From positions 1 to 64,000 of the forward strand of contig JAGLGN010000020.1 in assembly GCA_023144005.1 (NCBI GenBank): 64,000 nucleotides of DNA, written 5' to 3'. The position numbers were made by a program, and so were the translations under genes. Of the stretch, positions 25,140 through 63,560 are shown piece by piece. The first letter of the stretch is position 1. The number at the start of each line of letters is the position of its first letter. A model generated the notes under the pieces. The model saw only the letters and a program-made list of their open reading frames with translations. It had not been told where the DNA came from and searched no databases. This DNA is from a bacterium (lineage in GTDB: Bacteria; AUK180).

Positions 25140-28100
25140 CTATTTAACCACACCAATTGGCTCTTTTATTATCTCCACATCACCTGCGGAATTCGTTAAT
25201 TCCAGTATATAAATGTATATTCCGCTGCCGACATAACCTCCAAAGTCATTCGTACCGTCCCATCTGGCTGAATTCTTTCCCTCTTCGAAAGATACATCCT
25301 TAATAACATTACGCACCAGATCCCCTGTAACATCATATATTGAGAGATTTACCGTTCCTTTTTCAGGCAGATCAAATACGAATGAGGTGCCGCTCTCAGG
25401 AGTAAACGGGTTTGAAGTAAGATACGCCGTCAGATCAGACCCTGATGAGTCGGAATCAAGTCCCAGACAGAAGAGACCAAAATGGTTTACATTGAAAGAG
25501 ATTTTATTATTGATCAGGTCTCTTTGCTCACCACCGACTCTAACCCATTCAAAGCCGGTCCAGTGGAATGCAATAAGTTGCGTTTCATCCCATTCATCCA
25601 CCTGGTCCTGATCCGGATCAAGCTCTGCGTCTGTATAAGCCAAAGTAATTGTGATCTGTTCGTGGAAAGTCAGGTGATCTGGTGAGAATTCATGAGCAGC
25701 GCCCATCAAAATATAATCAGCATTCAATGGCTTATAGAGATCCTCTTTGGAAACTGACACGATACAGAGATTCTGCTTATCGATTAGCGCATCTTCAGGA
25801 ATTACAGCACCGGATCCGTCTGGAGATGAAACCGCCCCGCCATCCGCATTTACCACGGCGCATCCCTGAGGTACAATATAAGTAAGAGTAAATGTTTCTG
25901 AGATAGTATTGTCCAGCACATCAATTGCCGTAACCGTAATATCGTTGTTGCCTTCGATCAAGCTAACAATGTGGCTGAATGAATTATCATCATTAAGGAT
26001 TCCGATCGGACTGTTATTAACATGATCTCCGTTTTCATTCCGCACTTCAATAATGATATTCTCAACGCCGTTGGGATTCGGAAGATCGGACACGGTGCCT
26101 GAAATTATTACTTCATTTACATATACTTCTCCATCAAGAGGCCCTGCGATCGGCGCGGGACTGACCACAACGGCGATCCCTGGGGAAGTATTGTCTATCA
26201 AAAGGCCTGTAACCGTATCCTCGGAAATGAACACTCCCATTTCATCATAGGCCTGAACACGGATCATGAAGCCTGTTGAGTCCGCTAAACCATCTGCTGT
26301 CGTATCCCAGTCCTGTTCCCAACCGTCGGCACCATTGATATCGCTTGTTACGCCGATAACACCAACCAGATCATACCAGGTAATACCGTCAGGTGAAATA
26401 GAGAAATCCACTCTCGATGTATCATCCGGGGCAATTGCTTCGATCTTAATAATGTCATTCATGGAATAATCCGATAACGGTTGAATAATTGTTGTAGGTT
26501 CGGGTGTATTATCAAGCTCTACACTTGTATTTGCGCTTGAAATATTTCCCGCTGAATCCTCCGCAGCAACCTCAAGCGAATATGAGCCGTCAGGTATTGT
26601 ATTAGCCGCATTGATGGTATATGTGATGGTATATGTCGTATCGGTATTATCCAATACCACCTCATCACCCGCATTATACTCACTGTCAATCGTACTGAAA
26701 TCGGCAGTCACGGCCAGACCTGCTGCGTCCAGATCAGCGGTGATCGTGATAATATCACCGTCAGCATATGCACTTTGATCAGCACCGACCGAAGTAAATA
26801 TCGGAGCTGTATTATCTAAAGTTATGCCGAAGTTAGAATTCACAGGGCCGTTTCCAATCTCATCCAGCGCGCTGATCACAATAATTTTCGCGCCGTCTAC
26901 ATTTGCATTTCCTTTAGAGATCGTATATTCTATTGTGTAAGTCGTATCGCCGTTGTCGGTTACTGTTTCCGAACCAGATACATAATTTGAGTCCACATTA
27001 ATAAAGTTGGCGGTGATCAGATACCCGATACCGTCCCAATCCGTAACCAATGTGATGGTCTCTTCATTTCTGTAGATCGTATCACTATCCGCTTGAAGAG
27101 TGGAAGTATGGGCGGGCGCGGCATTGTCCAATTCAATTCCTGCTTCAGGATTGAAGATATTCCCGACGCCATCTGTAACTACTGCAGTTAACGTCTTGAG
27201 GCCATCAGCAATCGTATTTGCTGGAGAAATAATATAATTCGCCGTGTAAATACTGTCATTGGCCGTTATATCGGGAGCAACGCCATTATCAAGAAGACTC
27301 AGATCTCCGGCTGCTGTATCGTCAAGCAGCAGGAGCTGAGCAAGAGGCATGACTACCGATAGTCCATTCTCGTACCCATAATATTTGAATTGAACCGTAT
27401 CGGAATCCTTAAGTTTTGAAGGTGATGCAATTAATTCGCCAAGGGCATTTGTGTTGTCCAACCCGATACTGGTGGCTAAATTGGAAGAATTGCCTGCTGT
27501 GTCCTCTGCACCTATCAAAATTGAATATGAGCCGTCAGGTATTGTATTGGCCGCATTGATAGTATACGTGATGGTATATGTCGTATCGGCATTATCCAAT
27601 ACCGCCTCATCACTTGTATTATATTCACTGTCGATCGTACTGAAATCGGCAGTCACGGCAAGACCTGCTTCGTCCAGATCCACTATGATCGTGATGAGGT
27701 CACCATCAGCATATACGCTCTGATCTGCATCAACCGATGTAAACACAGGCGCAGTATTATCGACTATAATTGCATTATTCTCAATAGATGGTATTGGTGT
27801 GTTATCGCTCTCATCGGTAACTGTCACTCTGATCTCATATTGAAGTTCAGCGGCAGAACCCGCGATCGAGATAATATCTGTTCGGGATACAGCGGCGCCG
27901 CCGGTAAGTCCGCTGGAGATCGTCTTTTTACCTATCTCAGTTGCGCCATCGTAGATCTCGATCAGAATAACTCCAGGATTTAATTCCGTATATGTGTAGT
28001 TTACAGAAACAGTAGAACCCGCTTTTACCGTGATCGGTGCAACTCCAGTCGGAGAGTTGATCGAAGTTACCTGCGGCGCAGTATTATCGGTAGTGATCTT

Positions 28101-30488
28101 GTCATTTACATCTTCTGCGATCAGGGCACCATATGCATCGTAAGCCCGGGCACGGACCTGATAGGCTGCACCATCGGCTAAACCGTCATTTACACTGTCC
28201 CAGTCATACTTCCAACCGTCGGACGGAGTATTATCTGTAGTAACCAGTCCCAGAACGGCCGGAGTAGCAAGATCATACCAATTAGCACCACCGTCGGGAG
28301 AAATTTCGAAAGTTACTTCCGCCGTATTATCAGGAGCCACCGCTTCGATCGATTCTGTTCCCGAAATTGTTGTGATAGGGAGAGGAGTAATGATTGTCAC
28401 GGTAGTGCTGTTATCAATATAGAAAAGTCTCAGATCGGAAACGCCTACATTGCCATTTTCATCTACTGCTTTCACCTGGACAATGTGCGATCCGTCACTC
28501 AATAAGGTAGTGTCCAGAGAGTAGTCTCCGGCACCGCCGGTAATCGGTGGCTGTGTATCGACAGGAAGCCATACACTTCCGTCAACGGATATTTCGCAAC
28601 TGTCAGTATTGAGATCCGCGCCACCCTGGGGCGTCGCAGTAAATTGAAACAGGACTGTGCCGCTGATGATCTGGGCAATTGTAGGTGAAACCATCGCAAC
28701 TACCGGATCATTAGCGCTACCGCCAACATTGACTACGGTAACTGTAATTATCTGTGTTGTATCTCTCGCAGGAATGTTGTCATCCGTGGCGCGTATGCGT
28801 ATTTCATAGACACCATCAGCTTTCAGAGTAGAATTCCAATTACCGAACCACCATTCTGTGTCTGCTACCTGAGTCATGGCAGTCCATCCCGCCTCGCCTT
28901 CAATCTGATATTCTACAGAATCAATATTCGCTCCACCAGCTGGAACTACCCATGCATCAATCGGAACAGTCCCCTGAACGGTGGTACCGTTCTCCGGATG
29001 GATCACCTGTACATAAGGTGCTCCCAAGCGAAGTAATGGCCAACCGATGGAAAGGTTGATATTACCGGTTGCATCAACATATTCTACATCAGTATTGGTA
29101 CCATATTCCCAATAGAAATCTCGGCCGGTAGCATCATCATAATATTTGATCAGAAAACCGATCAGTGAATCGGGGCCAAGCTGGTCGAGATCATAAGGAT
29201 CCGGACCACCTGAGTTATATGATACCTGAAATTCATAATCCCAGTAAGTACCAATGTAAGTGGAATCTCCAATAGCATCATTAGCATCTGCAGCGGATGT
29301 ATCGTCAGCCCATATCCCACCGCCGCCGGGGTTGTCAAAATACCAATCGGTAGCAACACCACTTGTTATTCTGATCGCATTTTCCTGATTGTCATCCAGT
29401 ACGTAGTCTCTGATAGAAGTAGGCCCTGGATTTTGCTGCTCTTGATATATTTGACAGTAATCCGCTGCATCTTGAACCAGGTCATGAACCCGTATGCCGA
29501 AATAGAAATCATCGGCAGCAGAATCATTTATTGAATATATAGTGGCATCAATAGTATTTCCCTGAAAATCGGTAAAGATAATATCCCTTTCATAACTACC
29601 ACGCCAGGCATCTTCTGAAATATCACCGTCAATCGTGGGATTTCCGTTTGCATTGGTCGTTGCGGAAAATGTCATGAATTCTTTTGGCTTTCCCAGTATG
29701 ATATCGGCCCAGCCTACTCCGGTACCGGGATCGATTGGTTTCGGCTCATCGGATGCTCCGGCACCCGGATCATTCAGACCATTTAGTTCATCCCAATATC
29801 TCCATTGGTCACCATTATTGAATACTGCTAAAAAAAAACCCAGCTCATCTCCGGTGAATATGCTGTCTCCGCCGTCAACCAACAGGTCAAATCCACCCAG
29901 CGTGATGGGTATCCTGAACTCCCATGTGTATATATTGGTGGCATAAGTTTCAAGCACATCGAAATCCGTATCTCCTGCCACTGCGTCATCGTCATCGCCG
30001 CTTGCATATCCAGCTCCGTCCTTCCAGCCGGTACCCGTCCAATAAAGGTCCCAGGGAGCTGCTGCTGCACGGTTTGAGGATACTGCATTCTCTTCACCGG
30101 CAGTTAGTATATCGTCATGCGTTCCCCCGCCGACACCTTCGTCAAAGTACATGATAACCCTGTTATTCGCCGAATTGTTTCCTGCAAGGCCATAAACGAC
30201 ACTGATATACAGATTAGATGCATCATTCATAATGTAAAGATAGGCAGGACTTCCATTGTCCAGATATATCTCTCTACAGAAGGCGTCATCCCATTCAGCA
30301 GGGTTGCCTGTAATGTCACCGTCGATCGTCGGTGGACTATCACACCATGCGCTATGAAGCTGTAATGCTTCTCCGTTGCCTTCCGGGACATGACCCCACA
30401 TTTGACTTGGTATAAAAACAATTGCCGTTAATACCAGAAGCAAGAGAAACTTAGCAATTCCTAATTTCGAACACGCCTTTCTTTCCAT
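25140..30488 (-). CDS. Giant secreted protein: two CBM9-like domains, Ig-like repeats, FlgD-type C-terminal domain
   Basis: 1782 residues with a signal peptide (about 1-32). Two related CBM9/DOMON-like domains begin at about 45 (TIDGDITGNPAEWDD) and 275 (TIDGDISEDAWRGSY). From about 500 to 1650 follow Ig-like domains built on TAPVFTSV... and DGSYSI...AEDTAGN units; two of them (DNA about 27460-27760 and 26500-26800) are nearly identical. The last 90 residues (NPFTPESGTSFVF, IYDVTGDLVRNV, GGYVGSGIYIYIL) form a FlgD-like/type IX-like sorting domain. It probably binds surface glycans. GAGGAGG precedes the ATG and a barrel gene follows 11 bp downstream. Confidence 0.85.
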   Translation of the reverse strand: MERKACSKLGIAKFLLLLVLTAIVFIPSQMWGHVPEGNGEALQLHSAWCDSPPTIDGDITGNPAEWDDAFCREIYLDNGSPAYLYIMNDASNLYISVVYGLAGNNSANNRVIMYFDEGVGGGTHDDILTAGEENAVSSNRAAAAPWDLYWTGTGWKDGAGYASGDDDDAVAGDTDFDVLETYATNIYTWEFRIPITLGGFDLLVDGGDSIFTGDELGFFLAVFNNGDQWRYWDELNGLNDPGAGASDEPKPIDPGTGVGWADIILGKPKEFMTFSATTNANGNPTIDGDISEDAWRGSYERDIIFTDFQGNTIDATIYSINDSAADDFYFGIRVHDLVQDAADYCQIYQEQQNPGPTSIRDYVLDDNQENAIRITSGVATDWYFDNPGGGGIWADDTSAADANDAIGDSTYIGTYWDYEFQVSYNSGGPDPYDLDQLGPDSLIGFLIKYYDDATGRDFYWEYGTNTDVEYVDATGNINLSIGWPLLRLGAPYVQVIHPENGTTVQGTVPIDAWVVPAGGANIDSVEYQIEGEAGWTAMTQVADTEWWFGNWNSTLKADGVYEIRIRATDDNIPARDTTQIITVTVVNVGGSANDPVVAMVSPTIAQIISGTVLFQFTATPQGGADLNTDSCEISVDGSVWLPVDTQPPITGGAGDYSLDTTLLSDGSHIVQVKAVDENGNVGVSDLRLFYIDNSTTVTIITPLPITTISGTESIEAVAPDNTAEVTFEISPDGGANWYDLATPAVLGLVTTDNTPSDGWKYDWDSVNDGLADGAAYQVRARAYDAYGALIAEDVNDKITTDNTAPQVTSINSPTGVAPITVKAGSTVSVNYTYTELNPGVILIEIYDGATEIGKKTISSGLTGGAAVSRTDIISIAGSAAELQYEIRVTVTDESDNTPIPSIENNAIIVDNTAPVFTSVDADQSVYADGDLITIIVDLDEAGLAVTADFSTIDSEYNTSDEAVLDNADTTYTITYTINAANTIPDGSYSILIGAEDTAGNSSNLATSIGLDNTNALGELIASPSKLKDSDTVQFKYYGYENGLSVVMPLAQLLLLDDTAAGDLSLLDNGVAPDITANDSIYTANYIISPANTIADGLKTLTAVVTDGVGNIFNPEAGIELDNAAPAHTSTLQADSDTIYRNEETITLVTDWDGIGYLITANFINVDSNYVSGSETVTDNGDTTYTIEYTISKGNANVDGAKIIVISALDEIGNGPVNSNFGITLDNTAPIFTSVGADQSAYADGDIITITADLDAAGLAVTADFSTIDSEYNAGDEVVLDNTDTTYTITYTINAANTIPDGSYSLEVAAEDSAGNISSANTSVELDNTPEPTTIIQPLSDYSMNDIIKIEAIAPDDTSRVDFSISPDGITWYDLVGVIGVTSDINGADGWEQDWDTTADGLADSTGFMIRVQAYDEMGVFISEDTVTGLLIDNTSPGIAVVVSPAPIAGPLDGEVYVNEVIISGTVSDLPNPNGVENIIIEVRNENGDHVNNSPIGILNDDNSFSHIVSLIEGNNDITVTAIDVLDNTISETFTLTYIVPQGCAVVNADGGAVSSPDGSGAVIPEDALIDKQNLCIVSVSKEDLYKPLNADYILMGAAHEFSPDHLTFHEQITITLAYTDAELDPDQDQVDEWDETQLIAFHWTGFEWVRVGGEQRDLINNKISFNVNHFGLFCLGLDSDSSGSDLTAYLTSNPFTPESGTSFVFDLPEKGTVNLSIYDVTGDLVRNVIKDVSFEEGKNSARWDGTNDFGGYVGSGIYIYILELTNSAGDVEIIKEPIGVVK

Positions 30489-30560: not shown

Positions 30561-30939
30561 ATAATGTTGTGAATGATAATATTTCATCCCCCCCCTTATG
30601 GCAAGATTTGTGCCGCAAAGCGAATTGCTTTGATATTGGAAAAAGTCTAAAACAGCAGAACAGAAATTACATAATTTTACATTATTTTACCTATAAATAT
30701 ATAATATTCGATGGTAAGTTGATAGGATGGTAGGTGCACAAGCGCACAAGCGCACAAGGCACAAGTGTGTAAGGGAAAAGGAAACACATCCGTAACCGGA
30801 AAATTGTTTAGGATAAGAATCTCTTTGTGTTCTATCTTTTAATTGTCAATTGTCCATTGTCAATTATGTTTAGTCCCTTGTCCCTTGAGCCTTGAAACTT
30901 GTCCCCTGTCCACTTGTGCCTTGTACCTTGTGCCTTGTC
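30561..30939. repeat. Repeat-rich spacer: dispersed leader and heptamer arrays
   Basis: A run of C at about 30590-30596 is followed by AT-rich sequence. GCACAAGC-type units start at 30735. About 30748-30850 is an inverted copy of 22805-22910, and 30811-30848 holds the conserved leader (AAGAATCTCTTTGTG ... TTTTAATTGTCAA). TTGTCAA heptamers lie at 30842-30866 and CTTGTCC/CTTGTGC heptamers from about 30874 to 30940, running up to the stop of the methyltransferase gene. No gene is supported. Confidence 0.65.
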
Positions 30940-36300: not shown

Positions 36301-36446
36301 TAAGAATCTTTTTGAATTCTAATTTTTAATTGTCAATTTCTCTATAATCACTGCGAAGCGTCATTCTTCATTGTATTTTCCCACTTTACACTTCACACTT
36401 TCTTTTACACTTGTCCCTTGTACACTTGTGCCTTGTGCCTTGTGTT
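36301..36446. repeat. Leader plus mixed heptamer array
   Basis: 36301-36338 is a copy of the conserved leader (AAGAATCTTTTTG ... TTTTTAATTGTCAA). After TCTCTATAATCACTGCGAAGCG come CACTTTA/CACTTCA/CACTTTC units (about 36382-36407) and CTTGTCC/CTTGTGC units (about 36410-36445). The array ends at the stop codon of the next gene. No gene is supported. Confidence 0.6.
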
Positions 36447-37149: not shown

Positions 37150-37312
37150 AATTAAAATATAGTTATCTCATTCCTCTTTTTCTCTTCTCTAATTCTTCAT
37201 TTCTTAATTCTTCATTGTTCATTATTCATTGTTCATTGTTCACTGTATTTTCCCACTTTACACTTCACACTTCACACCTCACACTTTCTTCTGCACCTGT
37301 CTACTTGAGTAT
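37150..37312. repeat. Heptamer arrays before the end of the giant gene
   Basis: TTCTTCA/TTGTTCA-type units run from about 37190 to 37245 (ATTGTTC ATTATTC ATTGTTC ATTGTTC) and change to CACTTTA CACTTCA CACTTCA CACCTCA CACTTTC at about 37254-37288. The unit length of seven holds although the bases drift. The array stops at the 3' end of the 2721-residue protein gene. Confidence 0.65.
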
Positions 37313-40300
37313 AACACACTTACCCTGGATCTGCTCGCCTGCTTCGTCGGTAATAATGTATATATATACCCCTGAAACGACCTTTTTTCCTCTGCGTGTC
37401 CTAAGGTCCCAGGTGTGATCGATCAATTCCGGCTGCATTTTAATTACAAATTCTCCTGAAATACTGTATATCGCAATACTTGAATTCTCAGTGAGATTGG
37501 CAAATGTGATATGTTCAATACCCATATTGCTGCTCCACGGAACGGGATAAACCACGACATCGCCAAGGCCTTGAGCATAATTGTTCACCGCATCAAAATC
37601 CTGTACCTGGCTTATCGTCAGGTCAATGAACTGAGCCGTCTCCGGAGTATATTTATAAAGCCCTACTTCAGGAGTAACCGTATATGTCGCGCCTGCATCA
37701 AGGTCCGTAAACAAGTAATATCCTGAAATATCAGTATAAACTTCCGTTGTGGAAGCACCCGTAAGAACAACCTTGATATCCGCCAAAGGAGTTATCCCTG
37801 ACATAATATTTCCGCTTATCGACCATGAATTCAATGTTCCGGTGAAGTCCACATCAGAAACATTCGCACTCAAAACAGTACAATTGGTATTTGCGGGGCT
37901 GAATTCATAATGCGTATGCGAAGGCGTGACCGTATAATCTTTGCCCGCATCAAGACCGGCAAAGGAATAATTACCGCTGCCGTCAGTCGTCGTTGATGCT
38001 GTCGCATAACCGCTCAGATCCACGGTAGCACCGCTTATCGGATTTGTGCCGTCGGTGATGTTCCCTGAGATATCCCATGTATTCAGAGTTCCCGTAAAAT
38101 CAGAGCTCGAGATATCCGAGCTGATATTATTATACGAATTGCTGGGAGCCGCAAAGGTGTAATGCGTCATTGACGGTGTAACCGCAAAGTCCTCACCCGC
38201 ATTCAAACCGGCAAAGGAATAGTTCCCACTGCCGTCTGTCGTAGTTGTAGCAGAGGCATAGCCGCTCAGATCGACCGTAACACCGCTTATCGGGTTCGCG
38301 CCATCTGTTATCGTGCCTGAAATGGTCCATGTATTCAATATGGCAGTGAAATCAGTTGAGGTTTCATCCGCGCTCAAATCTGTATGCTCTGTACTTGTAG
38401 GAGCAAAGGAATAATGCGTGAGTGATGGAGTAACGGTATAATCTCCGCCAGCGTCAAGGCCGGCAAAGGAATAATTGCCGCTGCCGTCGGTAACAGCAAA
38501 GGTAGTCGCTGAGCCGGTGAGATCCACGGTGACACCAGAAAGCGGGGTAGCCCCATTAGTAATGGTGCCCGAGATATCCCAGGTTTTCAATGTACCGGTA
38601 AAATCATTTCCGGTATCATTCGCGCTGAGATCCAGGATCGAAATATTCACGGGAGCAAATATATAATGCGTATGAGATGGTGTCATGGTATAATCACCAC
38701 CTGCGTCAAGATCGGCAAAGGAATAATTACCGCTGCCGTCAGTAACAGTCGTGGCGGTAGCCGAGCCAGAAAGGTCGACTGTAACGCCGCTTATCGGGTT
38801 AGTGCCGTCGGTGATCGTCCCAGAAATGTCCCATGTATCGATCGTCCCTGTGAAATCGGTATTGTTGCGATCGCCTCCCAAATTAAAATGGGTGGTCCCT
38901 GAAGGTACGAACATGTAGTGTGTGTATGACGGTGTAACCGTATATGTCGCTCCCGCGTCAAGCCCGGCAAAGGAATAATTACCGCTGCCGTCGGTCGTAG
39001 TTGATGCTGACACATAACCGCTCAGATCGACCGTAACTCCGCTTAACGGATCAGTGCCGTCTGTGATCGTGCCTGATACATCCCATGTATTAAGAGTTCC
39101 AGTGAAATCGGTCGCGGTTTCATCCGCGCTAAGATCGGTATATGTGGTACTTATAGGAGCGAATGTATAATGCGTGAGTGACGGCGTGACCGTATAATCA
39201 CCGCCCGCATCAAGCCCGGCAAAGGAATAATTACCGCTGCCGTCAGTTGTCGTTGTAGCAGTTGCCGAACCCGAAAGATCGACAGTAACTCCGCTTAACG
39301 GATTAGCGCCGTCCGTGATCGTTCCCGAGATATCCCATGTATTAAGGGTTCCTGTAAAATCAACTGATGTCTGATCGCTGTCCAATGAAGCGATATCCGT
39401 AAATGACGGTGAGAACGAATAATGTGTAAATGATGGGGTGACAGTATAGCTTTCACCATGAGGGACATCCGCGAACGAATAATTTCCGCTGCCATCAGTA
39501 ACGGTGGAAGCCGAACTGTATCCGCTCAGATCAACCGTAACTCCAGCCATCGGAACTGCACCATCGGTTATCGTGCCCGAGATGGTGTGCGGAAGAGATT
39601 TTGTGATTACATCAAGCTCATCCGAAGCATCCCTTGAAAGAGGGATGCAATTCTTGGCTACGACCAAGTAAAAATATCCTGTCGCGGGTGTCAAGCCAGA
39701 GTCAGCAAATGTCAAAGCATTGGTATCCGAAGCGAGCAGAGTCGCAGTAATAGTATCCACCGGCGTCGTGCCGCTTCTGTAAAGATCGTATATAACCTCT
39801 TCTATCGTCTGCTGGGCATCTGTTGCCGCATCCCAGACAATAGTTATCGCATTGTAAGTAACAACAGTCGAATCTATATTAGAAATACCTGAAACAGCCC
39901 AGTCTGGTGCGGTTGTATCCGCAGGATCACATGCAGGCAAAGTTGCAATCGCTAGCTCGTCCGATGCCTCCCTTTCAAGCGGCACACAATTGCGTACGAC
40001 AACTTTATAATAATATGTCGTCTCCATTGTCAGTCCCGTATCCAGATATGTATTTGCTTCAGTATCTTCAACTATCGGTGTCAATGAACTTGTGTCAGAA
40101 ATTGTAACGGTATCTCTGTACAGATCATAGGTAAGAGGCAATGTGTCGTTCTCAAGATCAGAGGCCGCATCCCATTCCAAGTCAATAGATGTGTGGGATA
40201 TTGCCGTTGAACAGATATTCGAGACCCCTGAAACTGTCCAATCCGCAGCGGTAACATCGGCGGGATCGCAGATGACAGGTAGCGGAGCGGTATTTATATC

Positions 40301-43300
40301 GGCTACTGAACGGGGGTTCAATCTATAATAATCGTATCCGTATAATAACACACCCGTTAATTGACTTATCGTCTGGCCTGCCGTCATCTCGGCATGGTAA
40401 AAAGCATCATCACAGCCGAGTATCTTGGTTCCAGCGGAATCCCTGAACTCCCAATAGCCGTGATTTCCGGTGGTCGAACTCACCACAACATCATAGAATG
40501 TCACAAGGACACCTTCATACGCTTCAGGTACGAGATCGCAATTGGCGCCTTCCGGATCATTGTCTCCGATCTCTTCCACAGTTGTAGTGGTCGCATTTGT
40601 GGAATTGCCGGAAGAATTCACGGCATAAGCTGTAATCGTGTTGATCTGAGAAAGCCCGAAATACTCGTCAACCGTACCGGTAATGGTAATATTATCCCCT
40701 ATAACAGGGAAATTTGTGAAGTCATAGACATAAATACCGTTCCAAGCGCCATCGGCATCGGTAATAATATATTTATTCGTACCGACCGCAGTAACATTCC
40801 CCGTCAAGGTAACTTCTTCCGCTTCTCTTGGAGAATCGTAGCATTCCGATCCGACGCTTCCTGTAAATTGTATACTGTAGATAGTATCAACCGGAACGGC
40901 CGGCGTAATAACGGTCAGCTCATCAGAGGAATCCCTTGAAAGCGGAACACAATTGGAAACCGTGACAAGATAATAATATGTATTGGAAGCGGAAACCGTA
41001 TTGTCAGCGTATGTAGTAAGAACCGTATTATTGGCAAGTAATGTTGCGGTTGTCGTATTGAGCGGCGTTGAATTACTTCTATAAAGATCGTATGTCAATG
41101 CCTGCGTATTGTTATCACTGTCGGATGCGGCATCCCATGAAAGCGCAACGGATGTCTGCGAAACAGAAGTGCTATCCAGATTGGAGATCCCTGAGACAGT
41201 CCAATCAGGCGCTGTAGTATCCGAATCATCACAAAGAGAAGCCCCGGAAGTGTCAATATCGGCTGCTGAGCGGGGGTTCAATCTATAATAATCGTATCCG
41301 TATAATAACACACCCGTTAATTGACTTATCGTCTGGCCTGCCGTCATCTCGGCATGGTAAAAAGCATCATCACAGCCGAGTATCTTGGTTCCAGCGGAAT
41401 CCCTGAACTCCCAATAGCCGTGATTTCCGGTGGTCGAACTCACCACAACATCATAGAATGTCACAAGGACACCTTCATACGCTTCAGGTACGAGATCACA
41501 ATTGGCGCCTTCCGGATCATTGTCTCCGATCTCTTCCACCGTTGTTGTAGTGGCGTTTACAGGATTACCGGAAGAATTCAAGGTATATGAAGTGATCGTA
41601 GTAAGTTCAGTCAAACCGAAATACTCATCTACCGTGCCGGTAATAGTAATATTATCCCCTACCGTAGGAGTGTAATTGGAGTCATAAACATATAAGCCGT
41701 TCCATGCACCATCCGCATCGGAGATAACATATTTTCCGGTTGCGATTGCCGTAACAACACCTGTAAGGGTGACCTCTTCCGCATCCCTGGGAGAGTCATA
41801 ACATCCGGATCCAAGAGTTCCTGTAAATTGCACACTGTAGATAGTATCCCCTGCCGGGCCGGCGGGAGTTGTAGTTTTAACCTCATCGGAAGCTTCCTTT
41901 TCAAGAGGCACACAGTTCTTTGCCGCTATTTTGTAATAGTATGTATTTTCAGGAACCACTGTGCTATCCGCATATGCTGTACCCGTAAGATTCGATGCGA
42001 CAACGGTAGCTGTAGATGTATCGACAGGCGTAGAACCGCTTCGGTAAAGGTCATAGGTCACGGCTTCTGTCGTATTTTCAGTATCCGCGGCAACTCCCCA
42101 ACTGAGAGTTATCGAGCTTGATGCGGTATTTGTAACGGCGATATCCGATACTCCGCTCACCGTCCAATCTGGAGGTGTCGTGTCACTGTCATCACAGGCA
42201 GCAAGCGTCTCCCTCTGAATAAATTCATCCCAATTGCTTGTAGTAGCGATCAGCGTCGAGTCATAATACGCGTCATAATCCAATTCATCTAAGGGATAAT
42301 AGATACCGGTCCCGTAACAATCATTTCCCGTCTCGGCAAAATTATTTGTGACCGCATTAGTAATGGCCGTTCTAACTGCTGCAGAGCTGTCCTTCAAAGA
42401 TTGCGGTACCGCCTGGGCCTCTAATTTCAAACAGAAATCGTAAAGATCTATCTGATCGTAATAAGGGTAAGAAGAGTCAAGTTCAAAGGTATTGGCTCTT
42501 GCGTTTTGTATCTGCGTGCCATATGAGCTCAAATTCTGTCTGAGCTTGATCGCGAAAGAATTGATCGCGGGTGTCAGGCCTGAAGATACCTGCGCGAGGT
42601 CCAGGGCAGATTGTGTCCATCCGTTTGATCCACTTTCTCCCGCAGCATATGCGTCAACTACCGAATTTGCCAATGCCACAGGTGTAATTGTCCCTCCACT
42701 GCTCACAATATCATTCAGAAACGGTGTATAAGACCATCCGTCAAGCCACTCCGACATCTCTGATGCCACCATATAATCAAAATACGGAGCTGATTCCGCA
42801 TTATTTTCCCACATCTGGTCAAGACATACATCATAACCCACTATGTCGAGTTTTGAGCCGTAATAAGTATATATCTCTTTAAAAGCCGTACCAAGTTCAC
42901 CGAGCATACCCGGAGTGCCTGAAGTGAAATATAAGTAATCGCCACTTGTATCATCCGAGGAAGCGCCCTTGTAAGAGGCAAGATTATCCTCGACTTTCCG
43001 CCAGCCGTCACCATGATCCCAGATCACCAGCATATAATGCTCGGCGGGGTAATTATCCCTCACCCATTTTCCGAAGGAGACCAATGTATCGCCATCTCCC
43101 ATATTTGCCTCTCCGATATCCGAAACAGCGTTTGCAATTGTCGGAGTCATCCCGGAGGTAATATAATATCTCTTAGTTGAGGTCCAGTCGTCGTATAATG
43201 AAGAATAACCACCGATCCTGTCCATCTGGACAACGATATTCAGATTAGCATCAGAACCGACAGCGGACATTTCCAGAAAATCATCAATGCCGTCTGCTTC

Positions 43301-45466
43301 AAGATTATTGTCACAGTTAAGAAACACCGCGACGGTCCATTTCGGCAATACGCTTTCGGGGGTATTTATCTCTACTTCATCGGAGGCAGTCATAGAAAGC
43401 GGAACACAATTGGATGCCACTACTTTATAATAGTAAGTGGTGCCGCCGGAAAGAGAGCTGTCCGTATAGGAAGTTGAAGTGATCCCTGCGGTCATCAATA
43501 TCGCCGTTGTAGTATCCACAGGTGATGTCTCACTTCTATAAAGGGCATAAGTTATGGCCTCTGTATCATTTTCCGCATCCGTTGCGGAATCCCAGGCCAA
43601 TGCCGCGGATGATGATGTGATCAAGGTTGAATCGATGTTTGAAACACCTGAGACCGACCAATCCGGAGCAGTTGTATCTCCATTATCACAAGCATTCACT
43701 GAAGGGCTGGTATCTATATCCGAAGCGGAGCGGGGATTCAATCTGTAATGATCATAAGTGTAAAGGAGAACTCCCGTGATCTGTGAAATAGTCTGGCCGT
43801 TCGCGAGATCGGCAAGGTAGAAACTATCGTCACAGCTCAATTCAAGGGTTCCCGACTGATCCTTGATCTTCCAATATCCGTAAGTACTTAAAGGCGAGCT
43901 GACAACAACATCATAAAGCGTCACAAGAACACCCTCATACTCCTCCGAGTCGGCATTACAGTCCGCTCCCCATTGGGAAGAGCCGCCGATACTTTCACAT
44001 GTAACGGTAGCAGGAGTTACAGAATTTCCCGAAGAATTCAAGGTATATGAAGTAACAGTCGCGATCTCGGTAAGGCCGAAATATTCATCCACTATACCGG
44101 TTATTGTAATATTGTCTCCAACGGATGGGGAATAATTGCTGTCATAAATATAAACCCCGTTCCATGCGCCGTCAGCATCGGCGAAAACATATTTTCCAGT
44201 GCCTATTGCGGTAACGATGCCTGTCAGGGTAACCTCTTGTGTTTCTCTGGGGGAATCGTAGCATTCACTTCCCACAGTCGCCGTGTTCTGAACACTATAT
44301 ATCGTATCTGTGGTCTCCGCGGGAGTTGTTATCTCGATCTCGTCTGAAGCGGTTCTGGTCACAGGTACGCAATTTGATGCCACGACCTTGTAGTAATATG
44401 TTGTTTCTGCTGAAACAGTATTATCCGTAGCACTGGTGGATGTGGTTCCAGAAGCTACCAGAGTTGCCGTAGCGGTATCAACAGGAGATGTTCCACTTCT
44501 ATACAGGTAATATGAAATTGCAAATGTATCATTCTCAACTTCGGAGGACGCGTCCCACATAAGCGTGACCTGATCCGCCAGAAGTGAGGATGTCTCAATG
44601 TTTGACACTCCTGAGACCGCCCAGTCCGGAGGTGTCGTATCGGAATCGTCGCACCCGGCGCATGTACCGCCCCATACATCACATACCCATTCGGGGTGAT
44701 CTATATACGGATTTCTGTTGCCCTGGATCGCGTAAACCGCGTCGTTTCTGTCTATTTCCTTCTGGCTGACCGGATCTGCGTTATGCCATTCCAGGAACAT
44801 ATCATACGCCCAGGCCTGAAATCCGGGATATGATGTACCGTTGAAGCTGGTATCGGTCGTGTCCCAGGAATCGATCCGGTCTTCGTACCTTGTCACAGTA
44901 TAGAAATAGGTTCTTGCAAAATCGCCCTTATATTCATCAATGGGTTCAAATATCGCTCCAGAATAACCCGCGTATGAACAACTTCCGACCTTCGAACCAT
45001 TCGTCGATGTCCAGGTCGGGCTTGAGGTTTCACCGAAGGGGTAATTTGATCTTCTCCCGTTGACATATCCATCGGTCGGATATACCATAAAAAGATCAGT
45101 GTACATGGGAGAAGAGCTCCCGAACCAGCTTGAAGGGATAGAATGCTCTCTATTATAGCAATCCGCTTCACTGTTATAGGTTCCGCATTGATTCGAACCA
45201 TGTGTATAAGTGTATGCGGGAGTGCCGCCGGGAACAGTGGAGTACATATCCCATACGGTATTCGCGCCCGTATTATCAGTGGTCTGATAGGCGATATAAA
45301 GGGAATCATAGCTCTGACTGGAATGTCCGTCAATAATATAGTGAAGATTCGTCTTTAATGTAGCTCCGGTACCCGTAGCTGTATCATAATAGCCTGCGGG
45401 AATAGCCGCAAACAGAAGCTGTGAAAACGCGAAAAATGCAAGAAAGATCAACTTGGTAACTTTCAT
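37301..45466 (-). CDS. Giant secreted endonuclease I / clostripain-type peptidase with repeats and sorting domain
   Basis: 2721 residues from ATG 45466 (GAGG 5 nt upstream; GTG 45472 less likely). Signal peptide to about residue 20. Endonuclease I (EndA/NucM) domain, about 22-275: NREHSIPSSWF with H108, TDGYVNGRRSNYPFGE, GNRNPYIDHPEWV. Then Fn3-like domains (six in all, each with DTTxPDWxVSG...), three OB-like domains (ECYDSPREAEEVTLTG) and, at about 710-1085, a C11 peptidase with His in WDHGDGW (about 819) and Cys in GYDVCLDQM (about 881). Eight repeats of about 84 residues (ISGTITDG...TDGSGNYSFAG) fill about 1957-2630. The end (GDVVVYPVPW...SGVYIYII) is a sorting-type domain. Probably degrades DNA and protein outside the cell. 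Confidence 0.9.
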   Translation of the reverse strand: MKVTKLIFLAFFAFSQLLFAAIPAGYYDTATGTGATLKTNLHYIIDGHSSQSYDSLYIAYQTTDNTGANTVWDMYSTVPGGTPAYTYTHGSNQCGTYNSEADCYNREHSIPSSWFGSSSPMYTDLFMVYPTDGYVNGRRSNYPFGETSSPTWTSTNGSKVGSCSYAGYSGAIFEPIDEYKGDFARTYFYTVTRYEDRIDSWDTTDTSFNGTSYPGFQAWAYDMFLEWHNADPVSQKEIDRNDAVYAIQGNRNPYIDHPEWVCDVWGGTCAGCDDSDTTPPDWAVSGVSNIETSSLLADQVTLMWDASSEVENDTFAISYYLYRSGTSPVDTATATLVASGTTSTSATDNTVSAETTYYYKVVASNCVPVTRTASDEIEITTPAETTDTIYSVQNTATVGSECYDSPRETQEVTLTGIVTAIGTGKYVFADADGAWNGVYIYDSNYSPSVGDNITITGIVDEYFGLTEIATVTSYTLNSSGNSVTPATVTCESIGGSSQWGADCNADSEEYEGVLVTLYDVVVSSPLSTYGYWKIKDQSGTLELSCDDSFYLADLANGQTISQITGVLLYTYDHYRLNPRSASDIDTSPSVNACDNGDTTAPDWSVSGVSNIDSTLITSSSAALAWDSATDAENDTEAITYALYRSETSPVDTTTAILMTAGITSTSYTDSSLSGGTTYYYKVVASNCVPLSMTASDEVEINTPESVLPKWTVAVFLNCDNNLEADGIDDFLEMSAVGSDANLNIVVQMDRIGGYSSLYDDWTSTKRYYITSGMTPTIANAVSDIGEANMGDGDTLVSFGKWVRDNYPAEHYMLVIWDHGDGWRKVEDNLASYKGASSDDTSGDYLYFTSGTPGMLGELGTAFKEIYTYYGSKLDIVGYDVCLDQMWENNAESAPYFDYMVASEMSEWLDGWSYTPFLNDIVSSGGTITPVALANSVVDAYAAGESGSNGWTQSALDLAQVSSGLTPAINSFAIKLRQNLSSYGTQIQNARANTFELDSSYPYYDQIDLYDFCLKLEAQAVPQSLKDSSAAVRTAITNAVTNNFAETGNDCYGTGIYYPLDELDYDAYYDSTLIATTSNWDEFIQRETLAACDDSDTTPPDWTVSGVSDIAVTNTASSSITLSWGVAADTENTTEAVTYDLYRSGSTPVDTSTATVVASNLTGTAYADSTVVPENTYYYKIAAKNCVPLEKEASDEVKTTTPAGPAGDTIYSVQFTGTLGSGCYDSPRDAEEVTLTGVVTAIATGKYVISDADGAWNGLYVYDSNYTPTVGDNITITGTVDEYFGLTELTTITSYTLNSSGNPVNATTTTVEEIGDNDPEGANCDLVPEAYEGVLVTFYDVVVSSTTGNHGYWEFRDSAGTKILGCDDAFYHAEMTAGQTISQLTGVLLYGYDYYRLNPRSAADIDTSGASLCDDSDTTAPDWTVSGISNLDSTSVSQTSVALSWDAASDSDNNTQALTYDLYRSNSTPLNTTTATLLANNTVLTTYADNTVSASNTYYYLVTVSNCVPLSRDSSDELTVITPAVPVDTIYSIQFTGSVGSECYDSPREAEEVTLTGNVTAVGTNKYIITDADGAWNGIYVYDFTNFPVIGDNITITGTVDEYFGLSQINTITAYAVNSSGNSTNATTTTVEEIGDNDPEGANCDLVPEAYEGVLVTFYDVVVSSTTGNHGYWEFRDSAGTKILGCDDAFYHAEMTAGQTISQLTGVLLYGYDYYRLNPRSVADINTAPLPVICDPADVTAADWTVSGVSNICSTAISHTSIDLEWDAASDLENDTLPLTYDLYRDTVTISDTSSLTPIVEDTEANTYLDTGLTMETTYYYKVVVRNCVPLEREASDELAIATLPACDPADTTAPDWAVSGISNIDSTVVTYNAITIVWDAATDAQQTIEEVIYDLYRSGTTPVDTITATLLASDTNALTFADSGLTPATGYFYLVVAKNCIPLSRDASDELDVITKSLPHTISGTITDGAVPMAGVTVDLSGYSSASTVTDGSGNYSFADVPHGESYTVTPSFTHYSFSPSFTDIASLDSDQTSVDFTGTLNTWDISGTITDGANPLSGVTVDLSGSATATTTTDGSGNYSFAGLDAGGDYTVTPSLTHYTFAPISTTYTDLSADETATDFTGTLNTWDVSGTITDGTDPLSGVTVDLSGYVSASTTTDGSGNYSFAGLDAGATYTVTPSYTHYMFVPSGTTHFNLGGDRNNTDFTGTIDTWDISGTITDGTNPISGVTVDLSGSATATTVTDGSGNYSFADLDAGGDYTMTPSHTHYIFAPVNISILDLSANDTGNDFTGTLKTWDISGTITNGATPLSGVTVDLTGSATTFAVTDGSGNYSFAGLDAGGDYTVTPSLTHYSFAPTSTEHTDLSADETSTDFTAILNTWTISGTITDGANPISGVTVDLSGYASATTTTDGSGNYSFAGLNAGEDFAVTPSMTHYTFAAPSNSYNNISSDISSSDFTGTLNTWDISGNITDGTNPISGATVDLSGYATASTTTDGSGNYSFAGLDAGKDYTVTPSHTHYEFSPANTNCTVLSANVSDVDFTGTLNSWSISGNIMSGITPLADIKVVLTGASTTEVYTDISGYYLFTDLDAGATYTVTPEVGLYKYTPETAQFIDLTISQVQDFDAVNNYAQGLGDVVVYPVPWSSNMGIEHITFANLTENSSIAIYSISGEFVIKMQPELIDHTWDLRTRRGKKVVSGVYIYIITDEAGEQIQGKCVILK
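40310..40578. repeat. Near-identical internal copy A of an OB/linker segment
   Basis: This stretch within the giant gene matches 41270-41538 with one base difference up to about 40578, at an exact spacing of 960 bp. It encodes the C-terminal part of an OB-like domain (TTTVEEIGDNDPEGAN to YDYYRLNPRS). Flanking parts of the two domains have diverged much further. Confidence 0.85.
41270..41538. repeat. Near-identical internal copy B of an OB/linker segment
   Basis: Partner of 40310-40578, offset 960 bp. The third, related domain (around 43730-43990) codes for a similar protein segment but differs at many bases, so only two of three copies have been made alike. Confidence 0.85.
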
Positions 45467-45686
45467 AGACACCTCAATTAGTTTATCTTATTTGAATTAA
45501 TATATCAATACCGATTAAGCAAAAAGAAGTTCCAGGTTCAAAGGTTCACAAGTGTTAACGTATGATGTGTAGCGTGTCAAGTGAAATGTAATAAATATTC
45601 ACACCCGTAACCGGAAAATCGTTATTTCGTTTCTTTCATTAAAATCACCCGTTATAATAATAGAACGCCGGAGCGAAGTAAGATGT
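45467..45686. other. Spacer upstream of the giant gene
   Basis: AT-rich sequence next to the giant gene, then AGGTTCAAAGGTTCACAAG (45535-45553) and, at 45600-45625, CACACCCGTAACCGGAAAATCG, which matches the CACATCCGTAACCGGAAAA word at 30784-30802 and its inverted copy near 22851-22870. No gene is supported. A -35/-10-like pair close to the start (45480-45508) would place transcription start on top of the ribosome site, so I do not call it. Confidence 0.4.
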
Positions 45687-45835
45687 GGGACACGCCGTAC
45701 TCCGCAGGAGTTCGACTGTCCCGATGTAAAAGTTCCAAGCAAAGAGTTGACAGGAAGCGAAGCGTGTAAACTCTTTGCCCCGTTAGAATCAAACGGAAAC
45801 ATTCTCCACACATCTTTGAATGTTATCCCCTTTCT
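45687..45835. repeat. Hairpin repeat, copy 2
   Basis: First hairpin: GGGACACGCCGTACTCC-GCA-GGAGTTCGACTGTCCC (45687-45722). Second hairpin: GCAAAGAGTT (45739-45748) and AACTCTTTGC (45769-45778), perfect 10-bp arms. The tail CCCCGTTAGAATCAAACGG...CATTCTCCACACATC follows. The whole unit matches copy 3 at 47571-47720 in the same orientation with few differences outside the first loop. Open frames across it exist on both strands but simply reflect the repeat. Confidence 0.75.
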
Positions 45836-45843
45836 CTTTAGTC

Positions 45844-47570: not shown

Positions 47571-47720
47571 AGGGACATGCCGTCGACAACTTATTGGCAC
47601 GACTGTCCCGGATAAAGGTACCAAGCAAAGAGTTGACAGGAAGCGTAGCGTGTAAACTCTTTGCCCCGTTAGAATCACACGGGAACATCCTCCACACATA
47701 TTTGAATGTCATTCCCGTGA
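47571..47720. repeat. Hairpin repeat, copy 3
   Basis: GGGACATGCCGTCGAC at the left and GTCGTGCC-complementary CGACTGTCCC (47600-47609) form the first hairpin with a different loop from copy 2. The second hairpin has the same perfect arms, GCAAAGAGTT (47625-47634) and AACTCTTTGC (47655-47664). The tail CCCCGTTAGAATCACACGG...CATCCTCCACACATATTTGAATG matches copy 2. Beyond it, GTCATTCCCGTGAAAGAG is half of the REP-like frame at 45841-45890, and 47745-47800 returns to heptamer-like sequence. Confidence 0.75.
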
Positions 47721-47805: not shown

Positions 47806-49167
47806 TTATTTAAGAAGCTCCTTTATTAGGCCTTTGACTTCCGGACTGGCGTTCTTTTTCAATTTGATAGTACCGGAGGTTTCTATTCGTGATGTCTCGA
47901 CATCCACTATCTTTGCCCGTATATAATACATATTGTTTATTAATGATATCTTGCCGATGACCATCTTGTTCACGGCAAGTATTTTACCTACTTCTACCGC
48001 GCATTCGGCTGAAACACAACCGGTTTTCTGAAACTCGACTTCATCCATTATCACTTTTAACGCGCTTCTTTCTATTACGGTGTATTTGCCGGTATCAAGG
48101 AGTTCGTCGCTGATCATATCCTCTATTACATCGCTGTAACTTTCCGGAACCTCAGGTGCCTCAAATTCCATTATGGCGATCGAGATCATCTTTTTCGGTA
48201 CTTCCTCTGCAAAAGATCTCTTTTTCTCCTTTTTGGGTTTTGATACATATTTTCTTTCAGGCATTGAAAAATCAAGGCCTGCTGAAATAAAGTGAAACCC
48301 TGTGAGATCTCCCATAGCAAAGGTATAGTCCACTTGATAGTTAGCATACATTACTCCAATACCAGCGCTTAAGCCCGAAGCCAGCTCATTTCTGTCAAGC
48401 TGATAGGCAGCACGCAGGGAAATGATATTATTAATGATGTATTCCGCTCCAAGGCCGAATTTCATCGGTGAATCCGCCGGACCCAGGAAATATGTGCCAG
48501 CGGCGTTTATCTTCAGCGTACCGTCCAGAAAGTCCTTGCCCACACTGAGTCCAAGCCGTCCCGGCGTCATTGAGTCATCCCCTGAAGAGATAGCAATGAT
48601 ATCATTCAATGATAATCCCACCTTGAGAATGTCAAGTGCATACTCCATTCCCATGGAGAGGTAGGCATAGGAGAACTTCTCCTCCGCAATATCCCCTGTT
48701 TCGGGTAATGTCTGGGACAATAATGAAAAACTGATCCCGGCCGTAAGCGCCGGCATGATCTTTCTTACATATCCCGCTCTTATTATGCTATCTCCGGTAA
48801 GAGAAGCGTTTTCATCGAGGATCTCTCCAAATTCATCTACCGCGATATAATCAGGATTCGCGATCATCTGATAAGAGACAAAAGCGAAATTGTCCTCTCC
48901 AATGGTCATTGCAAGTGAAGTCTGATTATGAGCCCTGCCGCTGAATACACCGGGGAAATATGAAAATCTCAACGAGAACTGATCTTTGATCCTCGCGGCA
49001 GAGGCACAATTAAAGCTCAGATAAGCCAAGGGCCTGTCTGAAGTTATCCCGCCCGGAAGCGCGAGCGTCAAGCCGTCAACGGGAGTGAACATTTCGGAAT
49101 ACCCGAGATCACCTGCGGAAGCGAATACGCATAGAATAACGGCACATGATAATATCATCCGCTTCAT
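47806..49167 (-). CDS. PorV-like outer-membrane barrel fused to a CsgG/TolB-like domain
   Basis: 453 residues. Signal peptide to about residue 18. Residues 20-325 are beta-rich and resemble PorV/UPF0164 barrels (ISSGDDSMTPGRLGLSVGKDF, LGLGAEYIINNIISLRAAYQLDR). After a basic linker (YVSKPKKEKKRSF) residues 335-453 form a CsgG/TolB-N-like domain: ISIAIMEFEAPEVPESYSD, ISDELLDTGKYTVIER, GCVSAECAVEVGKIL, GKISLINN. That fold normally lies in the periplasm. The fusion links a barrel to a periplasmic module. It starts 3 bp after the 1217-residue secreted protein. Confidence 0.8.
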   Translation of the reverse strand: MKRMILSCAVILCVFASAGDLGYSEMFTPVDGLTLALPGGITSDRPLAYLSFNCASAARIKDQFSLRFSYFPGVFSGRAHNQTSLAMTIGEDNFAFVSYQMIANPDYIAVDEFGEILDENASLTGDSIIRAGYVRKIMPALTAGISFSLLSQTLPETGDIAEEKFSYAYLSMGMEYALDILKVGLSLNDIIAISSGDDSMTPGRLGLSVGKDFLDGTLKINAAGTYFLGPADSPMKFGLGAEYIINNIISLRAAYQLDRNELASGLSAGIGVMYANYQVDYTFAMGDLTGFHFISAGLDFSMPERKYVSKPKKEKKRSFAEEVPKKMISIAIMEFEAPEVPESYSDVIEDMISDELLDTGKYTVIERSALKVIMDEVEFQKTGCVSAECAVEVGKILAVNKMVIGKISLINNMYYIRAKIVDVETSRIETSGTIKLKKNASPEVKGLIKELLK

Positions 49168-63342: not shown

Positions 63343-63560
63343 AGTGTTCTGATTCATGAAATAGAGGCTAGAGGTTCGAGGTTGGTGAAGGGAAGATTGT
63401 TCAAAAGTTCAAGGTTAAGGTAAAATCTCTTTTTACTCTATCTTATAATTGTCAACTGTCAATTGTGTATAATCATCCTTTAGTTTCCCACTTGTCACTT
63501 GTGCTCTTGTCACTTGTGCTCCTATCAACCATTGTCATCGTATTTATGAATCAAAACACT
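63343..63560. mobile_element. Inverted-repeat element filled with heptamer arrays
   Basis: Left end AGTGTTCTGATTCATGAAAT (63343-63362) and right end 63529-63560 (CCATTG...ATGAATCAAAACACT) match the termini of the element in the GNAT gene (28 of 32 at the right). The interior differs: GAGGCTA GAGGTTC GAGGTTG heptamers at 63364-63384, the conserved leader at 63418-63452, ATTGTCA ACTGTCA ATTGTGT units and CACTTGT units at about 63488-63520. No coding potential. A CT precedes the left end, as in the GNAT copy. Confidence 0.65.

What the first reader, a model, noticed from the sequence alone, without database searches (positions are those of the whole stretch)
37301..45466. One 2721-residue secreted chain with a nuclease and a peptidase
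An endonuclease I domain (NREHSIPSSWF, H108) and a clostripain-type C11 domain (His about 819, Cys about 881) sit in the same chain together with three OB-like domains, Fn3 linkers, eight repeats and a sorting domain. A surface machine that cuts DNA and protein side by side would suit digestion of biofilm, dead cells or DNA-protein complexes. I know of no described protein with this combination.
Basis: partly seen in the sequence, partly recalled or inferred. Interest (0 to 1): 0.6.

Follow-up and report, generated by a model that had tools for sequence, protein, structure and literature searches.

The report
Secreted giant carrying nuclease and protease
An uncultured bacterium encodes one very long exported protein that carries a complete DNA-cutting enzyme and a complete protein-cutting enzyme joined by DNA-binding-type and spacer domains; both enzymes are well-known families, but I found them fused in only one genus.

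Summary
The minus-strand frame 45466-37301 encodes 2721 residues: signal peptide, Endonuclease_1 (33-259, E 8e-86), Fn3, tandem-OB module, Fn3, Peptidase_C11 (714-1083, E 2.5e-36), then Fn3/OB modules, eight CarboxypepD_reg repeats and a type IX sorting tail. Catalytic residues are all present (E107/H108/N136; H818/D879/C881), and clostripain's two self-cleavage sites are matched (R823, K833). It is not a misassembly: a second genome of the genus has the same 2721-residue protein without indels, under purifying selection (dN/dS 0.09). The C11 block is shared with a second giant protein of the same genome that lacks the nuclease, so the fusion arose by domain shuffling. In Cloacimonadota both families occur in the same genomes but in separate genes (17 of 17 checked); in 48 sampled Bacteroidota with long nuclease frames no C11 was found. 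Most likely it is an exported, surface-attached exoenzyme for extracellular nucleoprotein. The known parts are ordinary and the combination is new as far as searched. Joint function and self-release are inferred, not shown.

The parts
45404..45466 (-). Start codon (ATG 45466) and signal peptide, residues 1-21
   Evidence: MKVTKLIFLAFFAFSQLLFA read directly; GAGG just upstream of the ATG
44690..45370 (-). Endonuclease I (EndA/Vvn-type His-Me finger nuclease) domain, residues 33-259
   Evidence: Pfam PF04231 8e-86 over 1-235 of 235; PDB matches 2pu3, 1oup, 1ouo
45143..45148 (-). Nuclease active site E107-H108 (motif NREH; Vvn E79/H80)
   Evidence: Invariant in 21 aligned sequences; roles from PMC5305256 and PMC2653514
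45059..45061 (-). Nuclease metal ligand N136 (Vvn N127)
   Evidence: Aligned with N127 in 1oup, invariant
44309..44656 (-). Fn3-like linker a, residues about 271-386
   Evidence: Six homologous ~100-aa Fn3-like modules in the chain; PF00041
43667..44308 (-). Tandem-OB module 1, residues about 387-600
   Evidence: AlphaFold2 pLDDT 85.5; OB folds of RPA, HIN-200 and AspRS type, Z about 10 for residues 1-99 of the model; profile hits EEP nuclease 9sf8 and YgiW 1nnx
43352..43666 (-). Fn3-like linker b, residues about 601-705
   Evidence: PF00041 608-686
42218..43327 (-). Peptidase C11 (clostripain family) domain, residues 714-1083
   Evidence: PF03415 2.5e-36; AlphaFold2 pLDDT 90.6; Foldseek best match clostripain 9cip, E 2e-21
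43013..43015 (-). C11 catalytic His818 (clostripain H176)
   Evidence: Invariant in 24 C11 sequences; aligned to clostripain
42824..42832 (-). C11 S1 Asp879 and catalytic Cys881 (D-V-C)
   Evidence: Both invariant in 24 C11 sequences; roles from PMC4850288
42968..42970 (-). Predicted self-processing site K833 (clostripain R190, PmC11 K147); R823 matches clostripain R181
   Evidence: Pairwise alignment with 9cip; Lys or Arg at this position in most of the 24 sequences; cleavage sites from PMC4850288; lowest model confidence at this loop
41897..42196 (-). Fn3-like linker c, residues about 1091-1190
   Evidence: Sequence repeat of linkers a and b
41237..41896 (-). Tandem-OB module 2, residues about 1191-1410
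   Evidence: Alignment A3; ExeM/NucH model NF033681 hit
40922..41236 (-). Fn3-like linker d
40292..40921 (-). Tandem-OB module 3, residues about 1516-1725 (227 bp identical to module 2)
39347..40291 (-). Fn3-like linkers e and f
37547..39346 (-). Eight CarboxypepD_reg-like repeats of about 84 aa (stalk)
   Evidence: PF13620 1.2e-56; TRF period 252 bp, 5.8 copies
37310..37552 (-). Type IX secretion sorting domain (Por_Secre_tail, type A)
   Evidence: TIGR04183 over its cut-off

Best explanation
It is a modular exoenzyme. After Sec export it is carried to the outside by the type IX secretion system and held at or released from the surface on a stalk of eight transthyretin-like repeats. The N-terminal endonuclease I nicks and cuts DNA or RNA non-specifically with Mg2+, with H108 as general base and E107/N136 binding the metal. 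The tandem-OB modules, of the kind found in ExeM-type extracellular nucleases, hold nucleic acid. The C11 domain is made as a zymogen, cleaves itself after K833 (possibly also R823), and then cuts proteins after Arg or Lys through D879. Together they would open DNA-protein material such as nucleoid debris, biofilm or dead cells. Shown here: gene, domains, intact catalytic residues, purifying selection, export signals, presence of a SprA-like protein. Inferred: both activities, nucleic-acid binding by the OB modules, self-cleavage, and joint action on one substrate.
For: Full-length Pfam matches. Catalytic residues invariant and matched to experimentally assigned residues. C11 model pLDDT 90.6, top match active clostripain. 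OB pairs match OB folds that often bind nucleic acid, and the solved EEP nuclease 9sf8. The orthologue keeps all 2721 codons, dN/dS 0.064 (EndI) and 0.049 (C11). Sorting tail, SprA-like gene and 26 tail matches in the genome. The two families occur as separate genes in all 17 Cloacimonadota genomes checked for both, which fits a functional link.
Against: No biochemistry. The OB modules are strongly acidic (29-32 D+E against 6-7 K+R), which speaks against simple electrostatic DNA binding, though all exported proteins of this genome are acidic. The second giant protein with the same C11 block has no nuclease, so the C11/OB/Fn3 block does not need one. The genome has three more EndI and five more C11 proteins, unfused.
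Confidence: 0.6

Rival explanations
1. The C11 domain is mainly a maturation module. It cuts its own chain (K833 inside C11, or K712 just before it) and so frees or activates the nuclease-bearing N-terminal part (about 75-88 kDa), as caspase-like processing domains do in other large surface proteins.
For: R823/K833 match the self-cleavage sites of clostripain and PmC11; K712 does not disturb this and sits at the start of the C11 domain (printed linker ESVLPKWTVAV); large surface proteins with caspase-fold autoprocessing domains are discussed in PMC3482391.
Against: In PmC11 the self-cut chains stay together as a monomer. Free-standing C11 proteins with sorting tails exist in the same genome, so C11 is also used as an enzyme in its own right. 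The same C11 block occurs in a giant protein without nuclease.
Confidence: 0.2
2. The two domains are merely joined by domain shuffling among exported giants that share Fn3/OB/C11 blocks. Each works on its own and there is no common substrate.
For: The C11 is sister to that of the 4430-aa protein (75% identity, support 100/100), and the nuclease is closest to that of the 1325-aa paralogue (71.6%). Fn3 and OB pieces are shared between these proteins and OB2/OB3 share 227 identical bases.
Against: The whole arrangement is kept without a single indel at 6.8% nucleotide divergence.
Confidence: 0.17
3. Polymorphic toxin or injected effector.
For: Nuclease plus caspase-fold peptidase in a long repetitive surface protein.
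Against: The nuclease is at the N-terminus straight after the signal peptide, and the C-terminus is a sorting tail. The genes next to it are a NicO/DUF1007 pair upstream and a 229-aa protein without Pfam match downstream, with no recognisable immunity gene. The same nuclease family is common in exported proteins of Bacteroidota.
Confidence: 0.02
4. Assembly artefact joining two genes at repeats.
For: The chain is full of repeats; one exact repeat of 227 bp.
Against: The orthologue in a separately assembled genome is 2721 aa with no indel, and no exact repeat of 30 bp or more was found among residues before OB2.
Confidence: 0.01

Closest known systems
Endonuclease I family (EndA, Vvn; PF04231)
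   Same: E-H motif and Asn metal ligand, full-length domain; many Bacteroidota and Cloacimonadota carry it
   Different: Here it is one domain of a 2721-aa chain with OB modules and a C11 peptidase
Clostripain family C11 (clostripain, PmC11)
   Same: His/Cys dyad, S1 Asp, self-cleavage sites, fold (Foldseek E 2e-21)
   Different: Internal domain of a giant chain; the solved C11 structures matched here are not part of such a chain
ExeM/NucH-type extracellular nucleases
   Same: Homologous tandem OB modules (NF033681 partial hits; profile hit to 9sf8)
   Different: The nuclease here is EndI, not an EEP domain; no EEP domain found
Own 4430-aa giant protein G000:C2 (L015) and G003:C68 (L140)
   Same: Fn3-OB-Fn3-C11-Fn3 block, C11 75% identical
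   Different: No endonuclease I; rich in lamin-tail domains
Gingipains such as RgpA (from general knowledge, not tested)
   Same: T9SS-exported peptidase of Arg/Lys type in a chain with extra domains
   Different: Family C25, no nuclease

Membership tests
Endonuclease I (PF04231) | Full-length domain over the curated cut-off | tested here: met
   288 bits against a cut-off of 25, model 1-235
Endonuclease I (PF04231) | Glu-His motif and Asn metal ligand | tested here: met
   E107, H108, N136 (roles)
Endonuclease I (PF04231) | Mg2+-dependent non-specific nuclease activity | not testable with these tools
   Needs protein
Peptidase family C11 | Full-length domain and fold | tested here: met
   126 bits against 25.8; Foldseek 9cip E 2e-21
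Peptidase family C11 | His/Cys dyad and S1 Asp | tested here: met
   H818, C881, D879 invariant in 24 sequences
Peptidase family C11 | Basic residue at the activation cleavage site | tested here: met
   K833 aligns with clostripain R190, and R823 with R181
Peptidase family C11 | Arg/Lys-specific activity, Ca2+ effect | not testable with these tools
   Needs protein
T9SS type A cargo | Signal peptide and C-terminal sorting domain over cut-off | tested here: met
   TIGR04183 24.5 bits against 23 for the protein; Pfam PF18962 18.9 against 27, below its cut-off
T9SS type A cargo | Secretion machinery in the genome | tested here: inconclusive
   SprA-like protein just over its cut-off (211 against 200, in three pieces); other components not searched
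ExeM/NucH extracellular nuclease | EEP nuclease domain | tested here: not met
   Only the OB part of NF033681 matches (120 against 300 bits); no EEP domain in Pfam
ExeM-type OB module | OB fold and homology to the OB part of ExeM-type nucleases | tested here: met
   DUF5689 (PF18942) itself hits only a relative's copy, in L094

The most novel reading that the evidence does not exclude
A single secreted chain works as a coupled nucleoprotein-degrading enzyme: OB modules hold DNA, EndI cuts it and C11 strips basic DNA-binding proteins (its Arg/Lys preference suits histone-like proteins), with the nuclease part set free by C11 self-cleavage. That would be a new kind of dual-substrate exoenzyme.
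Probability: 0.25. Interest if true: 0.6.

Novelty: new variant of a known kind. Interest (0 to 1): 0.36.

Why it matters
Extracellular DNA in nature is often complexed with protein. A natural chain carrying a non-specific nuclease and an Arg/Lys-specific peptidase would be a ready-made reagent for nucleoprotein and biofilm matrix, and would show how little-known lineages may feed on dead cells. The parts themselves are ordinary, and the combination is confined to one genus in what was searched.

Tried and rejected
Misassembly: rejected by the indel-free orthologue. Special Lys/Arg depletion as protection from its own peptidase: the chain has only 3.05% K+R, but all exported proteins of the genome are K/R-poor (mostly 2-8%, against roughly 10-17% for most other window proteins), and EndI domains of other phyla average 7.2%; so this is secretome-wide, not specific. 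Wider fusion search: none in the 80 genome loci apart from the same-genus record, none in 48 Bacteroidota genomes with long EndI frames, none in 17 Cloacimonadota genomes with C11 frames over 600 aa. Literature: no paper with both families or both accessions; one hit on clostripain plus nuclease domain concerned polymorphic toxins. Plasmid search: only CarboxypepD_reg repeats among the rows listed. A first dN/dS script failed on a missing file and was rerun.

Full report
1. The gene. On the minus strand an uninterrupted frame runs from ATG 45466 to the stop at 37301 and gives 2721 residues. GAGG lies just before the ATG. The GTG two codons further up that the ORF lister chose is less likely. 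The window is contig C13, bases 1-64000, of a 2.67-Mb genome (96% complete, 0.2% contamination) in a phylum with only seven genomes held.

2. Domains. Pfam and NCBIfam give Endonuclease_1 33-259 (8e-86), Peptidase_C11 714-1083 (2.5e-36), fn3, CarboxypepD_reg repeats and Por_Secre_tail 2639-2719. Between the nuclease and the peptidase lie an Fn3-like module, a 200-residue module and another Fn3-like module; two further such 200-residue modules follow the peptidase. AlphaFold2 on 13 copies of the 200-residue module (pLDDT 85.5) shows two sets of five strands, read here as two OB barrels. Foldseek and VIA-align match OB folds of RPA, HIN-200, tRNA synthetases and YgiW (VIA-align covers mainly the first barrel), and the sequence profile hits the solved EEP nuclease 9sf8 and YgiW. 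So the chain has six OB barrels in three pairs, related to those of ExeM/NucH nucleases. In ExeM the YhcR-like region, described as resembling an oligonucleotide-binding motif, is essential for activity (PMC6085458).

3. Catalytic residues. In EndA enzymes the motif EWEH carries the metal ligand E79 and the base H80, and N127 binds the metal (PMC5305256, PMC2653514). Here NREH gives E107/H108, and N136 aligns with N127 of 1oup. All three are invariant in 21 aligned relatives. For C11, PmC11 uses H133/C179, an S1 Asp177 and self-cleavage at K147, and clostripain is cut at R181 and R190 (PMC4850288). Here H818, C881 and D879 are invariant in 24 sequences. R823 aligns with clostripain R181 and K833 with R190. 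The C11 model has pLDDT 90.6 with its weakest stretch close to this loop; its best structural match is clostripain 9cip, E 2e-21.

4. Not an artefact. A separately assembled genome of the same genus (G003; record JAGLWT010000028) has the same 2721-codon gene. They differ at 6.8% of bases with no indel, dN/dS 0.09 overall, 0.064 in EndI and 0.049 in C11. The only long exact repeat (227 bp) is between OB2 and OB3, downstream of both enzymes; in the relative it is at most 50 bp, so it looks like recent gene conversion rather than an assembly join.

5. Origin. The C11 domain is 75% identical and sister (support 100/100) to the C11 of a 4430-residue protein in the same genome, which shares the Fn3-OB-Fn3-C11-Fn3 block and has no nuclease. 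The nuclease domain is closest (71.6%) to that of a 1325-residue paralogue without C11. The genome has four EndI and six C11 proteins; only this one has both. The fusion is thus most simply a product of shuffling among exported giants, fixed before the two species split.

6. Distribution. In the seven-genome phylum only the two same-genus genomes carry the fusion. Of 80 genome loci with the closest nucleases, only the same-genus record does. Of 296 Bacteroidota genomes, 100 have EndI at the threshold used; the 48 with a long EndI frame have no C11 match at E 1e-8. In Cloacimonadota 102 of 124 genomes have C11, and all 17 that were checked also have EndI, always in another frame. Separate genes in one phylum and a fusion in another is the usual sign of a functional link, but it is indirect. 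These are samples: an unseen case elsewhere is possible.

7. Export. There is a signal peptide, a type A sorting tail over the NCBIfam cut-off (under Pfam's), a SprA-like gene (just over its cut-off) and 26 tail matches genome-wide. Type IX export is likely; other machine parts were not searched.

8. What it most likely does. It is an exported modular exoenzyme that cuts nucleic acid and Arg/Lys-containing protein, probably on debris, biofilm or nucleoprotein, with the peptidase self-activating at K833. The main rival is that the peptidase serves chain maturation. Neither activity has been measured. The strongly acidic OB modules are a point against simple DNA binding, although all exported proteins of this genome are acidic and poor in Lys/Arg.

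9. Verdict. A real, conserved, new combination of well-known families; a new variant of a known kind and of moderate interest.

Noticed in passing
45590-45840 (-), also 47600-47716: An intergenic element of about 220 bp with internal hairpins occurs in at least 40 places in the genome (mostly 75-93% identity; 117 candidates, 40 scored), with relatives in the same-genus genome; no Rfam match. Looks like a small interspersed repeat family or MITE; not classified.
   Followed up: partly
30736-30765, 30873-30939, 36402-36436, 37185-37286, 63491-63521: Intergenic short tandem repeats of period 7, 8 or 15 (CTTGTCC, ATTGTTC, TTCACAC and similar) between genes.
   Followed up: no
T9SS-tail proteins of G000, e.g. 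window 37301-45466, 25140-30488: Proteins with sorting tails have mostly 2-8% Lys+Arg against roughly 10-17% in most other window proteins, with normal Asp+Glu; the genome also encodes six C11 peptidases. Secretome-wide depletion; cause unknown.
   Followed up: partly
40292-41896 (OB2 and OB3): 227 bp identical between the second halves of OB modules 2 and 3 here but at most 50 bp in the sister species: likely recent gene conversion.
   Followed up: partly
L015 (G000:C2), 4430-aa frame: A second giant exported protein with the same C11/OB/Fn3 block and seven lamin-tail domain stretches; its first 950 residues are mostly unassigned (weak DUF4350).
   Followed up: partly
L094 6484-8970: In a Bacteroidales genome a T9SS protein next to an EndI gene joins the same type of OB module (DUF5689) to a PLD-type NucT-like nuclease.
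   Followed up: no
47806-49167 (-): 453-aa protein whose N-terminal 300 residues look like an outer-membrane barrel (by eye) fused to a CsgG/LpoB-like C-terminal domain.
   Followed up: no
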